Source of the DNA: Hamadaea flava
Lineage (GTDB): Bacteria > Actinomycetota > Actinomycetes > Mycobacteriales > Micromonosporaceae
Assembly (NCBI RefSeq): GCF_024172085.1
Contig: NZ_JAMZDZ010000001.1
Span: forward strand, 7,006,001 to 7,070,000
DNA: 64,000 bases
Direction: 5' to 3'
Shown here: in pieces, positions 38,275 to 41,998 of the stretch
Numbering within the stretch: position 1 is the first letter of the stretch
Layout of the letters: every line of letters starts with the position of its first letter
The notes under the pieces: model-generated
The model's input: only the letters and a program-made list of their open reading frames with translations
What the model was told of the DNA's origin: nothing
The model's database searches: none
Made by a program: the position numbers and the translations under genes

Positions 38275-39387
38275 CTACCGTGCCAAGCTCAGCACCTCGG
38301 TCGCGGTGGTCGCGTCGGCCAGCGCGTCCGGGTCCGGGTCGACGCCGATCCCCGGCCCGGTGGGGACCGCGAGATGCCCGTCTTCCAGGACGAACGGCCG
38401 CGTGATGTCGCGCGCGTAGTAGCGGCTCGACGCGGACGTGTCGCCAGGCAGGGTGAAGTCCGGCAACGCGGCCAGCGCGACGTTCGCGGCCCGGCCCAGG
38501 CCCGTCTCCAGCATGCCGCCGGCCCACACCGCCACGCCGTTGGCCGCGCACACGTCGTGGATGCGCCGTGCTTCCAGATATCCGCCGACCCGCCCCGGCT
38601 TGATGTTCACGATCGAGCACGCGCCCAGCGCGATGGCATCGGCCGCAGCACGCGCCGAGATGATCGACTCGTCCAGACAGATAGGGGTACGCACAACGCG
38701 CGCCAGTTCGGCGTGACCGCGTACGTCGTCTTCCGGGAGCGGCTGTTCGATGAGCAGCAGATCGAACGGGTCGAGCCGGGCCAGGTGCCGGGCGTCGGCC
38801 AGGGTGTACGCCGTGTTGGCGTCGACCTGCAGCAGGATGTCGTCGCCGAACCGTTCGCGGACGGCCCGGACCGCCTCGACGTCCCAGCCCGGTTCGATCT
38901 TCAGCTTGATCCGCAGGTACCCCTCGGCGAGGTAGCCGGCGACCGCGTCCAGCAGTTCGGGGATCGAGTCCATGATGCCGACCGAGACGCCGGACGGGAC
39001 GGCTGGGCGTACGGCGCCGAGGTAGGAGCCCAGCGACATGCCGGAGGCGCGCAGTTGCGCGTCGAGGACGGCGGTCAGCACTGCGGCCTTCGCCATCGGA
39101 TGCCCCTTGATCGGGGCGAAGGCACGCTCGACGGTGTGTGCCTCCATGGTGTCCAGTCCGGCCAGCGCCGGGACGAGGAAGCGGCGGATCACGTCGGCCG
39201 CGCCTTCGACGTACTCGGAGGAGTAGAGCGGCTCGTCCATCGCGACGCATTCGCCCCAGCCCTCGGCGTCCGGCCCGTACGCCCGGACCAGCAGCACGTC
39301 TCGGGCGTACTCGACGCCGAACGAGGTGCGGAACGGGGCGACCAGGGGCATCGCGACCCGGCGCAGTTCGATTCCGGTCAGCTTCAT
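38275..39387 (-). CDS. menC: o-succinylbenzoate synthase / N-succinylamino acid racemase (MenC2-type)
   Basis: 370-residue enolase-superfamily enzyme. The KxK base is in LRIKLKIEPGW, and the metal ligands are in LLQVDANTAY, LLIEQPLPEDD and PICLDESI. The second Lys is in CSIVNIKPGRVGGYLEA. The N-terminal RTSFGVEYARDVLLVR is typical of the OSBS/NSAR subgroup. OSBS makes o-succinylbenzoate for menaquinone; NSAR members racemise N-succinylamino acids. The gene is coupled (ATGA overlap, AAGGAG upstream) to a GNAT of the type that accompanies NSAR enzymes, and no other men gene is present, so NSAR activity is favoured. The symbol is family-level only. Confidence 0.85.
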   Translation of the reverse strand: MKLTGIELRRVAMPLVAPFRTSFGVEYARDVLLVRAYGPDAEGWGECVAMDEPLYSSEYVEGAADVIRRFLVPALAGLDTMEAHTVERAFAPIKGHPMAKAAVLTAVLDAQLRASGMSLGSYLGAVRPAVPSGVSVGIMDSIPELLDAVAGYLAEGYLRIKLKIEPGWDVEAVRAVRERFGDDILLQVDANTAYTLADARHLARLDPFDLLLIEQPLPEDDVRGHAELARVVRTPICLDESIISARAAADAIALGACSIVNIKPGRVGGYLEARRIHDVCAANGVAVWAGGMLETGLGRAANVALAALPDFTLPGDTSASSRYYARDITRPFVLEDGHLAVPTGPGIGVDPDPDALADATTATEVLSLAR

Positions 39388-40076
39388 GCGGGCTCCTTCA
39401 ACGCGTACGCCCCGTCGTCGGTGAATCCGGCGATGGTCCAACCGGCCGCCATCGGCCCTTGCAGTCCCTCGCGGACGGCGTACCGCCAGCTCGCCGCCGC
39501 AGCCGGGTCGGCCGAGCGCAGACCCTCGATGTCGGCAGGCGTGGCCACGAATCGGGTCGCCGCGGCCAGATCGGGGTCGGCGACCGGCTGCTCCAGCTCC
39601 CAGCAGATGTAGAGCCGGTCGCTCGGATCGCCGACGTTGATGCCGTCGGTCAGCGCGCCGTAGAAGTCTTCGAGGTACTCGGTCGCCCCGGCGCCCAGCT
39701 TCCGCAGATTGAAATACGCGTTCCGGCGTACCAGTGGGTCGAAGGTCCACCGGATGCGTGCGATGCCGTGGTGCCGTGACCAGTCGCGTTGATGGAGCTT
39801 GAGGGCGTGACCGACGCCCGCGCCTTGACCACCGGGGACCACGCCGGTGACGTGCGAGTGGAGGTGGTCGTCGCCGCGGAAGGCGACGCTGGCCCCGACC
39901 AGCTGCCCGTCCCGGTACGCCCCCACGACGTAGTTTCCGGCGTGGGCGAGGGCGCGCAAGGTGGACAGGTTGAGGATCTGGTCGGGCGAGTCCGCGCCCC
40001 AGACACGTTGCAGCAGCTCGCCGACGTCTGTGAGGCGGGCGACGTCGTCCAGCTCGATGATCTCCAGCTCCGCCAT
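39384..40076 (-). CDS. GNAT acyltransferase, COG3375 type, coupled to the racemase
   Basis: 230 residues. The N-terminal GNAT part has VWGADSPDQILNLSTLRAL, VVGAYRDGQLVGASVAF and the CoA-binding loop VVPGGQGAGVGHALKL. IRWTFDPLVRRNAYFNLRKLG is the hallmark of the family found beside OSBS/NSAR genes (COG3375). In characterised NSAR operons the GNAT partner succinylates D-amino acids before racemisation. That role is inferred here from the overlap with the racemase gene. It is read nine bases downstream of another GNAT gene. Confidence 0.85.
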   Translation of the reverse strand: MAELEIIELDDVARLTDVGELLQRVWGADSPDQILNLSTLRALAHAGNYVVGAYRDGQLVGASVAFRGDDHLHSHVTGVVPGGQGAGVGHALKLHQRDWSRHHGIARIRWTFDPLVRRNAYFNLRKLGAGATEYLEDFYGALTDGINVGDPSDRLYICWELEQPVADPDLAAATRFVATPADIEGLRSADPAAAASWRYAVREGLQGPMAAGWTIAGFTDDGAYALKEPA

Positions 40077-40085
40077 GCCGGGAGT

Positions 40086-40718
40086 CTAGGCCGTCAGCCA
40101 GTCCCGGCACTCGGCCAATCCGTCGATCTTGACGGCCGGCCCGCCATGCTGCTCGCGCCAGGCTTCGACCGGCAGCCGCAGTCGGACCATGTCGTCGGCC
40201 CCGTCGCCGTCGGCGTGGCGGTAGACGCCGTTGGGCAGGTAGCCGAGGCTGCGCGAGACGCCGACCGAGGCGGTGTTGTGGTGCCAGGCCTCGGTCTCCG
40301 CGACCAGCGCGTCGAGGTGATCGAAGGCGAGCGCCAAGACAGCCCGCCGCATGCGTTTGCCGATGCCCTGCCCGCGTGCCCCGGTGACCAGCCAGGACGC
40401 CGTCTCGACGGTACGCAGCCTGCCGAACTCCCGGGCCTCGAGCGTCTGCTCGCCGAGGATGCGGCCGTCGCGGAGCACCACGAACGGCAGTGTCCAGGTG
40501 CCCGGCCTGGAGTCGGCCCGATTCCGCCAGTACTGCTGGTAGACCCGCGCCGTGCGGTCGAGCCGGGGGTCGCCGTCGGCACCTGGCAGGGCCGGATTGA
40601 GTTCGACGTCGTCGGGGAGCGTCGCGGCCAGCGCCGGGAGGTCGGCCTCGGTCGTCGCCCGCAGGGTGAGGTCGTCGGCGGTCAGCTGGAGGTGAAGGAG
40701 CGCCTGCATGACCGTCAT
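40086..40718 (-). CDS. GNAT N-acetyltransferase, RimJ/RimL-like
   Basis: 210 residues. It starts with LTLRATTEADLPALAATLPD and has FVVLRDGRILGEQTLEARE, TASWLVTGARGQGIGKRMRR (the acetyl-CoA pyrophosphate loop GQGIGKRM) and NTASVGVSRSLGYLPNGVYR. This is the RimJ/RimL-type order for protein or small-molecule acetylation; the substrate is unknown. The start is at ATG 40718 or 40709, neither with a good ribosome site. It sits between the orphan antitoxin and the COG3375 GNAT, all on the minus strand. Confidence 0.85.
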   Translation of the reverse strand: MTVMQALLHLQLTADDLTLRATTEADLPALAATLPDDVELNPALPGADGDPRLDRTARVYQQYWRNRADSRPGTWTLPFVVLRDGRILGEQTLEAREFGRLRTVETASWLVTGARGQGIGKRMRRAVLALAFDHLDALVAETEAWHHNTASVGVSRSLGYLPNGVYRHADGDGADDMVRLRLPVEAWREQHGGPAVKIDGLAECRDWLTA

Positions 40719-40723
40719 TGTGC

Positions 40724-40766
40724 GACCGGCCCCGGATTGCCGCGCGGGCTTTTCGGCAGGCCGGTC
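40724..40766 (-). terminator. imperfect hairpin over the antitoxin stop codon
   Basis: GACCGGCC (40724-40731) pairs with GGCCGGTC (40759-40766), and inner TGCCG (40738-40742) with CGGCA (40754-40758), leaving a six-base bulge. It contains the first base pairs of the antitoxin stop and lies before the GNAT start at 40718. It may reduce read-through into the GNAT genes; no strong T-run follows. Confidence 0.35.
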
Positions 40767-41037
40767 AGCGCGGGTTTCCGCCAGGCGGGCGGTGTTCGGC
40801 GGTGAGCCCGAACTGGCGCCGGGTCGGCGTGGCCTCCGATGCGCTCGCGGTGTCGCTGGTCAGCCGGATCAGCGGCTGGTCGGCCGCCTCCAGCCGGTCC
40901 AGGTCCTCCGCGGAGACGAGGGCGACGATCGGCTTGCCGTGGCGCGTCACGACCACCCGCTCGCCGCCGTAGACGACGCGGTTGACGAGGTCGGCGAACT
41001 CGGCGCGGGCCTGCGTCACCGGGACTTCATGGGTCAC
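40765..41037 (-). CDS. Phd/YefM family antitoxin-like protein without adjacent toxin
   Basis: 90 residues. The N-terminal Phd/YefM fold is clear: HEVPVTQARAEFADLVNRVV, GGERVVVTRHGKPIVALVSA, then EDLDRLEA. The C-terminal third (SDTASASEATPTRRQFGLT...) is low-complexity and would be the toxin-neutralising part in a true antitoxin. No RelE/ParE/Doc-type gene lies on either side. The upstream region has two TGTACA sites, the hexamer recognised by YefM-type repressors, so the protein probably acts as the regulator of this divergent promoter pair. The start at 41037 gives 59 bases to the divergent ClpP-like gene. Confidence 0.85.
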   Translation of the reverse strand: MTHEVPVTQARAEFADLVNRVVYGGERVVVTRHGKPIVALVSAEDLDRLEAADQPLIRLTSDTASASEATPTRRQFGLTAEHRPPGGNPR

Positions 41038-41054
41038 CCTTCAGATGGTACGCT

Positions 41055-41079
41055 CTGTACAGAACTTACGTCCTGTACA
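41055..41079. promoter_or_regulatory. paired TGTACA operators between antitoxin and ClpP-like genes
   Basis: CTGTACA occurs at 41055-41061 and 41073-41079, the palindromic TGTACA cores being 18 bases apart. The stretch is AT-rich compared with its surroundings (CAGAACTTACGT between). TGTACA is the known core of YefM-YoeB operators (spacing 12 in E. coli). One regulator bound here could control both directions. Confidence 0.65.
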
Positions 41080-41096
41080 AATTAGGAGTCGTTCCC

Positions 41097-41702
41097 ATGA
41101 GCCACCTCCCGATGATCAATGAACGGACCGCCCGCTCCGAGTACCAGCTGGACCCGTACTCCAAGGCCTTCGGCGACCGGGTGGTCTTCCTCGGCACCGC
41201 GCTGGACGACCAGACCGCCAACGACGTCCTCGTCCAGCTGCTCTACCTCGACGCCGACAACCCTGGCCGGGACATCGGGGTGTACATCAACTCGCCTGGC
41301 GGCTCGCTGACCGCGATGCTCGCCGTGTACGACACGATCCGCAGCCTGGCCAGCGACGTGCAGACGGTGTGCGTGGGCCAGTGCGGCCCGGAGGCGGCGA
41401 TGCTGCTCGCCGCGGGCGCGAAGGGCAAGCGGATGATGCTGCCGAACGCGCGGGTCATCCTCCATCAGCCGTCGCTCGACGTTCAGCAGGGCGCGACCCA
41501 GGATCTCCGGGTGCAGGCCCAGGAACTGCTCCGGCAGCGGGCGGCGCTGGAGGCGATCCTCGCCGAGCACACCGGCCGGACCGCCGAGCAGATCCGGGAC
41601 GACCTGTCTCGCCCGCAGGTGCTGGACGGCCCGGCCGCGATCGCGTACGGGCTCGTCGACGTGGTGCTGGGCGATCGCAAGAACCTCGCGACGGCGGCCT
41701 GA
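41097..41702 (+). CDS. ClpP-like protein lacking catalytic Ser and Asp (pseudoprotease)
   Basis: 201 residues with the ClpP fold: DRVVFLGTALDDQTANDVLV, IGVYINSPGGSLTAMLAVYD, LLAAGAKGKRMMLPNARVIL, HQP, then EHTGRTAEQIRDDLSR. The catalytic Ser segment (GQAASMGA in ClpP) reads GQCGPEAA, putting Pro98 at the nucleophile position. His123 is kept. The Asp of the RDRFLSA-type segment is replaced by Pro173 (SRPQVLDGPAA). It therefore resembles ClpR-like inactive subunits, which might assemble with an active ClpP. The ATG at 41097 follows TTAGGAG. It is two bases ahead of a small helical protein gene and divergent from the Phd/YefM-like regulator. Confidence 0.9.
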   Translation: MSHLPMINERTARSEYQLDPYSKAFGDRVVFLGTALDDQTANDVLVQLLYLDADNPGRDIGVYINSPGGSLTAMLAVYDTIRSLASDVQTVCVGQCGPEAAMLLAAGAKGKRMMLPNARVILHQPSLDVQQGATQDLRVQAQELLRQRAALEAILAEHTGRTAEQIRDDLSRPQVLDGPAAIAYGLVDVVLGDRKNLATAA

Positions 41703-41704
41703 CG

Positions 41705-41998
41705 ATGGACGAGATGCTGCGCATGCCCGCCCTGACCCGGGCGGAGGCCGACGTCGTCGACAGCTACAGCGCGCTGCTGGAGAATCTGGCCCGCGTCAAC
41801 CCGGCCCGGCAGGACGAGACCTACCGCGCGCTGCGCGCCGCGCAAGCCCTGGTCAGCCAGGCCACCGCGCTTCGCGACGCGCTCGCGCTGATGTTCCAGC
41901 GCGGCGAGACCACCATCCATTCCTCCACATTGGTACGCGCACTGCTGATCCTCGACGCCGACAAGGCGGTCGACCGGCTGACCCTTGCGGGCCGCTGA
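41705..41998 (+). CDS. small helical protein cotranscribed with the ClpP-like gene
   Basis: 97 residues, unrecognised. Predicted almost entirely helical: LTRAEADVVDSYSALLENLA, TYRALRAAQALVSQATALRD, LALMFQRGETTIHSSTLVRA, LLILDADKAVDRL. There is no signal or membrane segment. The two-base gap to the ClpP-like gene makes cotranslation and a shared function likely, for instance as an assembly factor or adaptor; this is inference. It ends before a separate secreted hydrolase gene. Confidence 0.75.
   Translation: MDEMLRMPALTRAEADVVDSYSALLENLARVNPARQDETYRALRAAQALVSQATALRDALALMFQRGETTIHSSTLVRALLILDADKAVDRLTLAGR

What the first reader, a model, noticed from the sequence alone, without database searches (positions are those of the whole stretch)
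40765..41998. Orphan Phd/YefM regulator divergent from a dead ClpP paralogue and a small helical partner
Seen: a Phd/YefM-type protein without any toxin gene, 59 bases of divergent DNA with two TGTACA hexamers, then a ClpP-fold gene and a 97-residue helical gene two bases apart. Established: TGTACA is the core operator motif of YefM-YoeB, and Phd/YefM proteins bind DNA with their N-terminal domain. Inference: the antitoxin fold has been recruited as a repressor of a pseudoprotease module, possibly one that remodels the main ClpP complex under stress. I know of no named system of this composition.
Basis: partly seen in the sequence, partly recalled or inferred. Interest (0 to 1): 0.82.

Follow-up and report, generated by a model that had tools for sequence, protein, structure and literature searches.

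The report
Antitoxin-like repressor controlling a spare ClpP
A three-gene unit shared by many Streptomyces-type bacteria pairs an antitoxin-like repressor, without any recognisable toxin, with a spare ClpP protease subunit that has often lost its cutting site and with a small helical protein, which suggests a hidden switch on the cell's main protein-degrading machine.

Summary
In a Hamadaea-like genome a Phd/YefM protein with no recognisable toxin is divergent, over 59 bp, from a ClpP-like gene and a 97-aa helical gene. The ClpP lacks catalytic Ser and Asp (both Pro). The arrangement is not local. Of 121 Streptomyces genomes, the Phd occurs in 98, the helical protein in 99, both in 97. The operator, TGTAC-type sites at a 9-bp period, lies just upstream of the ClpP or helical gene in 96 of 102 loci (shuffled: 0.24). 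It stays with the operon when phd drifts away. Published YefM operators have 12-bp spacing. 'Dead protease' is only part of the story: the ClpP is a ClpP2 paralogue under purifying selection, its triad intact in 37 of 98 Streptomyces copies and broken in 61, in 27 forms, while the ATPase-docking Tyr is invariant. ClpP can be lost; Phd, operator and helical protein remain. Best reading: a Phd-repressed operon for a catalysis-optional ClpP2-like docking ring plus a helical partner; the ClpP is probably the literature's clpP5. Repression, assembly and the helical protein's role are inferred, not shown.

The parts
40765..41037 (-). Phd/YefM-type protein (90 aa), proposed repressor; conserved N-terminal domain and conserved C-terminal tail motif (RQFGLTAEHRP)
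41048..41079 (.). operator: four NTAC-type sites at a 9-bp period (GTAC 41048-41051, TGTACA 41056-41061, TTAC 41066-41069, TGTACA 41074-41079)
41097..41702 (+). ClpP-like subunit (201 aa), ClpP2-type, catalytic Ser and Asp both Pro, His kept
41705..41998 (+). 97-aa protein of no named family, predicted as three helices; second gene of the operon

Best explanation
The locus is a conserved accessory Clp module. The Phd/YefM protein is a local repressor, not a toxin antidote: it binds a phased array of TGTAC-type sites over the divergent promoters and shuts the clpP-like/helical operon (its own gene too, where adjacent). The ClpP-like protein is a ClpP2 paralogue. In Streptomyces ClpP1 supplies the catalysis and ClpP2 docks the ATPases (PMC9765437), so a ClpP2-type ring can lose its triad and still work; when induced it joins ClpP1 as an alternative docking ring and redirects or tunes the housekeeping protease. 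The helical protein is the near-constant companion of the Phd, probably binding the Phd's conserved tail (anti- or co-repressor) and perhaps the Clp complex. Shown here: conservation, co-inheritance, operator array and its linkage to the operon, ClpP2 kinship, repeated triad loss under purifying selection, retained docking Tyr. Inferred: DNA binding, repression, assembly with ClpP1, role of the helical protein, inducing signal.
For: Co-inheritance in 121 Streptomyces genomes: 97 both, 1 Phd only (an assembly gap of N lies where the helical gene would be), 2 helical only, 21 neither (tallied by hand). In G649 and G655 both genes are also present in a second nearby pair. Operator: GTAC-9-GTAC in 76 of 80 upstream regions (dinucleotide shuffles 0.3) and within 200 bp upstream in 96 of 102 drawn loci (mononucleotide shuffles 0.24). 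When Phd is displaced (gap over 200 bp), the repeats are at the operon and not within 150 bp of phd in 8 named and 18 drawn loci. ClpP: best kin among the genome's own ClpPs is the one I label ClpP2 (49% for the window, 57-63% for three relatives; the one I label ClpP1 37-44%), and it falls inside the module clade. Docking Tyr62 (E. coli mature numbering) is Y in 98 of 98, while catalytic His ranks 147 of 172 columns. dN/dS 0.12-0.16 for the dead Hamadaea ClpP, the neighbouring MenC-type gene 0.09-0.13. A ClpP2 Ser mutant leaves the ClpP1P2 core fully active and ClpP2 docks the ATPases (PMC9765437, section 6 read). The Phd tail motif is kept, in a looser form, in loci L151 and L152 that lack a whole ClpP.
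Against: No binding, expression or interaction data. In Hamadaea the third docking position (E. coli F82) is Ser and position 60 Gly, so docking may be altered in the window itself. The scan found no sigma-70-like promoter in the intergenic stretch. The loose four-site pattern TAC at a 9-bp period has 5 hits in the genome against 6 for its reversed control, so period alone is not distinctive. G608 has a second Phd without a second helical gene. ClpP-helical pairs without Phd or operator exist in another class (L154, L155), and helical proteins with neither partner exist (L023-L025; L211, L247). The helical fold gives no functional hint.
Confidence: 0.5

Rival explanations
1. Poison subunit: the ClpP-like protein breaks up or blocks the housekeeping ClpP1P2 core, as accessory ClpP_ADEP prevents ClpP1 tetradecamers, giving a Phd-controlled brake or antibiotic-protection device.
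For: ClpP_ADEP precedent (PMC12607617 passages); triad broken in the window and in 61 of 98 Streptomyces copies.
Against: ClpP_ADEP is reported closest to ClpP1, this protein is closest to ClpP2; 37 of 98 copies keep the triad; the docking Tyr is invariant, which a pure poison would not need.
Confidence: 0.2
2. Rearranged toxin-antitoxin pair: the helical protein is a toxin (or ex-toxin) neutralised by the Phd tail; the ClpP is a passenger or the protease part that destroys the antitoxin.
For: Near-perfect Phd/helical co-occurrence; conserved Phd tail; ClpP missing or a remnant in L021/L091 (one genome), L151, L152, L045.
Against: Divergent, not co-operonic; when Phd drifts away its gene loses the operator, so the autoregulation typical of TA is lost; no toxin family matched; helical genes without Phd exist.
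Confidence: 0.13
3. Decaying ClpP paralogue: the dead ClpP is a pseudogene on its way out and only Phd and the helical protein matter.
For: Truncated, frame-disrupted or absent ClpP in some loci (L045, L046, L055, L058, L069, L081, L091, L151, L152).
Against: 98 of 102 drawn loci keep a full-length ClpP; dN/dS 0.07-0.24 in 13 of 15 pairs of broken copies, 0.30 and 0.46 in the other two; 41 of 172 compared columns are at least 98% uniform.
Confidence: 0.1

Closest known systems
Streptomyces ClpP5 (S. lividans clpP5, described as monocistronic; PMC9765437 passage)
   Same: Streptomyces genomes with five ClpPs (G222, G327, G381) hold two adjacent pairs plus the single module ClpP, so it is probably clpP5.
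   Different: Identity with S. lividans clpP5 was not checked by sequence; here a helical gene follows directly and a Phd gene is divergent, which the passages seen do not mention.
YefM-YoeB / Axe-Txe toxin-antitoxin operons
   Same: Phd/YefM N-terminal domain; TGTACA-type operator.
   Different: No toxin gene found; sites 9 bp apart in a tandem of two to four, not two palindromes 12 bp apart (PMC7730913, PMC3303803 passages).
ClpP2 of actinobacterial ClpP1P2
   Same: Closest ClpP kin; docking Tyr kept.
   Different: Triad optional; separate Phd-linked operon with a helical partner.
ClpP_ADEP of Streptomyces hawaiiensis (PMC12607617 passages)
   Same: Accessory ClpP outside the housekeeping operon that acts on the main core.
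   Different: Reported closest to ClpP1 and functional with ClpP2; linked to an antibiotic cluster.
ClpR non-catalytic subunits of plastids and cyanobacteria (PMC6508832, PMC7966870: search listing only)
   Same: Catalytically dead ClpP paralogue kept as a ring subunit.
   Different: Triad lost repeatedly and incompletely here; different lineage and regulation.

Membership tests
Type II toxin-antitoxin (YefM-YoeB type) | Phd/YefM antitoxin domain | tested here: met
   PF02604, TIGR01552 over cut-off
Type II toxin-antitoxin (YefM-YoeB type) | toxin gene (YoeB/RelE, Doc or other) in the same operon | tested here: not met
   no toxin family among eight proteins scanned, the three module proteins and five neighbours; the three module proteins also gave nothing in PADLOC-DB; an unknown toxin family is not excluded
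Type II toxin-antitoxin (YefM-YoeB type) | two TGTACA palindromes 12 bp centre to centre | tested here: not met
   9-bp period; 18 bp between the two TGTACA
Type II toxin-antitoxin (YefM-YoeB type) | toxicity relieved by the antitoxin | not testable with these tools
   needs expression
ClpP serine peptidase (S14) | ClpP family match | tested here: met
   PF00574 E 4e-58
ClpP serine peptidase (S14) | Ser-His-Asp triad | tested here: not met
   window Pro-His-Pro; intact in some relatives
ClpP2-type ring subunit | groups with ClpP2 rather than ClpP1 | tested here: met
   ClpP1 and ClpP2 of the genome labelled by me from their pairing and kinship
ClpP2-type ring subunit | ATPase-docking pocket residues | tested here: inconclusive
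   Tyr62 kept in 98 of 98 Streptomyces copies; window Gly-Tyr-Ser at 60/62/82
ClpP2-type ring subunit | heterotetradecamer with ClpP1 | not testable with these tools
   biochemistry needed
Streptomyces ClpP5 | fifth, unpaired ClpP of the genome | tested here: met
   the three Streptomyces genomes with five ClpPs among eight searched
Streptomyces ClpP5 | sequence identity with S. lividans clpP5 | not tested
   that sequence was not at hand

The most novel reading that the evidence does not exclude
A protease-sensing feedback switch built from antitoxin parts: Clp, which degrades many antitoxins, destroys the Phd repressor, so Clp load sets the supply of an alternative, catalysis-free docking ring and of a helical ex-toxin that holds the Phd tail. 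The Phd tail motif [FY]G[ILV] may even enter the ClpP docking pocket as Clp-ATPase loops do (that resemblance is recalled, not tested).
Probability: 0.12. Interest if true: 0.85.

Novelty: new variant of a known kind. Interest (0 to 1): 0.63.

Why it matters
It would give the fifth ClpP of Streptomyces, for which the passages I saw give no function, a regulator, a partner and a testable job, and would show an antitoxin fold turned into a plain repressor with a new operator geometry. It also offers a natural series of ClpP subunits that have lost different triad residues while being kept by selection, a direct test of the idea that the ClpP2 ring is for docking and not for cutting. The operator and the purified parts can be tested in ordinary laboratory Streptomyces.

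Tried and rejected
Rejected: chance hexamers; neutral pseudogene. A wider Phd regulon is not claimed: the window's genome has no other exact CTGTACA-N11-CTGTACA site, and in eight Streptomyces genomes hits with up to one mismatch were about as frequent as for the reversed control. GNAT neighbours as toxins: only general GNAT matches and weak ones below cut-off.

Corrected on the way: one search used a wrong column for the catalytic Asp (redone); one search used a spacer one base short (redone); two searches were replaced by 8 and 9.

Full report
What is there. The window lies in a one-contig 8.86-Mb genome whose nearest named kin for this locus are two Hamadaea genome bins. A 90-aa Phd/YefM protein is encoded at 40765-41037 on the minus strand; 59 bp further a ClpP-like gene (41097-41702) and, two bases later, a 97-aa gene (41705-41998) run on the plus strand. 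Pfam and NCBIfam name the first two; no family names the third. The ClpP is dead by two of three triad residues: Ser and Asp are both Pro.

Is it conserved? The 97-aa protein was found in 11 of 200 family genomes, the window's own included, and its profile in 12 of 396 genomes drawn across the phylum, again with its own: 9 of one genus and 2 of another class besides. So it is patchy except in that one genus. A scan of named species genomes kept 80 loci of 93 relatives, mostly Streptomyces, also Actinacidiphila, Hamadaea, Planosporangium, Dactylosporangium and Parafrankia. Of these 80, 71 show matches to Phd, ClpP and helical gene together, some with a disrupted ClpP frame (L046, L058); Phd was not found in 7 and ClpP not in 3, one locus lacking both (counted). 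The module Phd (E at or below 1e-12) is in 98 and the helical protein (E at or below 1e-6) in 99. Both are in 97; the one Phd-only genome, G603, has a run of N where the helical gene would be; two, G652 and G693, have only a divergent helical relative; 21 have neither. Fisher p is 3e-20, which ignores shared ancestry. G649 and G655 carry a second Phd and helical gene close together, with a full-length, intact ClpP (L209, L215). G608 has a second Phd without a second helical gene.

The operator. Across 80 upstream regions (the window and 79 named loci; L052 was cut at a contig end) GTAC followed by GTAC 9 bp later occurs in 76, dinucleotide shuffles give 0.3; distance 9 was counted 80 times, no other more than 10. 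In the drawn set it lies within 200 bp upstream of the ClpP (or, without ClpP, helical) gene in 96 of 102 loci, mononucleotide shuffles give 0.24. Of the other six, three have an extra gene at the front of the operon and the repeat before that gene, one has lost ClpP and keeps the repeat further up, and two are the orphan helical genes, without it. The Streptomyces consensus is GTACGTCCTGTACATTTT followed by TTAC. Among loci where phd and operon lie more than 150 bp apart, 8 named and 18 drawn have the repeats at the operon and none within 150 bp of phd; the reverse was seen in 8, of which seven have the front gene (so the repeat is still before the operon) and one is the ClpP-less L152. Four more drawn loci have no Phd in the stretch fetched and keep the operator. 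Against distinctiveness: in the window's genome the loose pattern of four TAC at a 9-bp period has 5 hits and its reversed control 6. YefM operators are 12 bp apart in E. coli, and in Streptomyces yefM/yoeB too (PMC7730913, PMC3303803; passages).

The ClpP. It is closest to the ClpP2 of its own genome (49%; ClpP1 37%; the labels are mine, from pairing and kinship) and that ClpP2 falls within its clade. Among 78 named rows, window included, 14 keep Ser-His-Asp (four rows are truncated or frame-disrupted). In the drawn set 98 of 102 loci hold a full-length ClpP: 37 intact, 61 broken in 27 different triad states; two of the 61 differ only by Asn or Glu for Asp and might still work. On a quick tree of these and seven reference rows at least 11 changes between intact and broken are needed (triad columns not left out). 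On the careful tree of named rows three changes are needed: the Hamadaea group with one kin whose only change is Glu for Asp, the Streptomyces crown, and the genome's own ClpP4. Yet dN/dS in 15 pairs of broken copies that I picked is 0.07-0.24 in 13, 0.30 and 0.46 in two; five intact pairs give 0.07-0.33. In the drawn copies the docking Tyr (E. coli 62) and Leu 23 and 114 are invariant, while the catalytic His ranks 147th of 172 columns. This fits the finding that in Streptomyces ClpP1 gives the catalysis, ClpP2 the ATPase docking, and a core with a ClpP2 Ser mutant is fully active (PMC9765437, abstract, passages and section 6). Against: the window's own docking set is Gly-Tyr-Ser, so its docking may differ.

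Who needs whom. Phd, operator and helical gene remain without ClpP in Planosporangium thailandense (L021/L091, the same contig) and G360 (L152), with a 54-codon ClpP remnant in G392 (L151), and in L045 with phd about 1 kb away. ClpP plus helical gene without Phd or operator in the stretch held occur in two genomes of another class (L154, L155). Helical relatives with neither exist (L023-L025, L211, L247). The Phd tail carries a motif, strict form in 88 of 96 Streptomyces proteins and looser forms in the other 8, L151 and L152 among these. I infer that the tail binds the helical protein rather than the module ClpP. AlphaFold gives three helices (12-31, 39-65, 73-96; mean pLDDT 80, pTM 0.66), with no informative fold match.

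How it most likely works. Phd represses the operon from a phased array; on release, a ClpP2-like ring that need not cut joins ClpP1 and changes what the main protease does; the helical protein links Phd and perhaps Clp. The regulatory link rests on conservation (about 0.85 likely), the ClpP2-substitute role on kinship and residues (about 0.5), the helical protein's role is a guess (about 0.3).

What is known. Three of eight Streptomyces genomes searched have five ClpPs: two adjacent pairs and the module ClpP, so it is probably clpP5, called monocistronic in S. lividans (PMC9765437 passage); the sequence was not compared. ClpP_ADEP shows that an accessory ClpP can rebuild the core (PMC12607617 passages). 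Searches of the open library listed no paper whose title or abstract start describes a Phd, ClpP and helical-protein module; subscription papers are not covered. PLSDB annotates one copy as Phd/YefM antitoxin, ClpP subunit and hypothetical protein.

Noticed in passing
L048, L054, L072, L073, L176, L209, L215: A variant with about 1.1-1.2 kb between Phd and ClpP. In the three tested (L048, L054, L072) a gene with a Pfam thioesterase domain lies there; all seven have the operator next to phd and an intact ClpP triad.
   Followed up: partly
L034 3677-4198: A gene with an Excalibur calcium-binding domain lies between the displaced phd and the operator.
   Followed up: partly
L003 1501-2040 (G000:C1:8399113-8399652): The genome's ClpP4-like protein has Ala at the catalytic Ser position, so a second ClpP of this genome is probably non-catalytic.
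   Followed up: no
L023, L024, L025, L211, L247: Orphan relatives of the helical protein without Phd, ClpP or operator found nearby.
   Followed up: partly
L154, L155: ClpP plus helical gene without Phd in two genomes of another class of the phylum; the L155 ClpP reads as keeping Ser, His and Asp.
   Followed up: partly
window 38275-40718: An o-succinylbenzoate synthase/racemase-type enolase and two GNAT genes lie next to the module and keep that place in the two Hamadaea bins.
   Followed up: no
L260, L261; plasmid records NZ_CP139046.1, NZ_CP081497.1: Helical-protein relatives on two contigs of the viral collection (not read) and on two large Streptomyces plasmids.
   Followed up: partly
L259: A long run of N follows the ClpP in G603, where the helical gene is expected.
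   Followed up: yes
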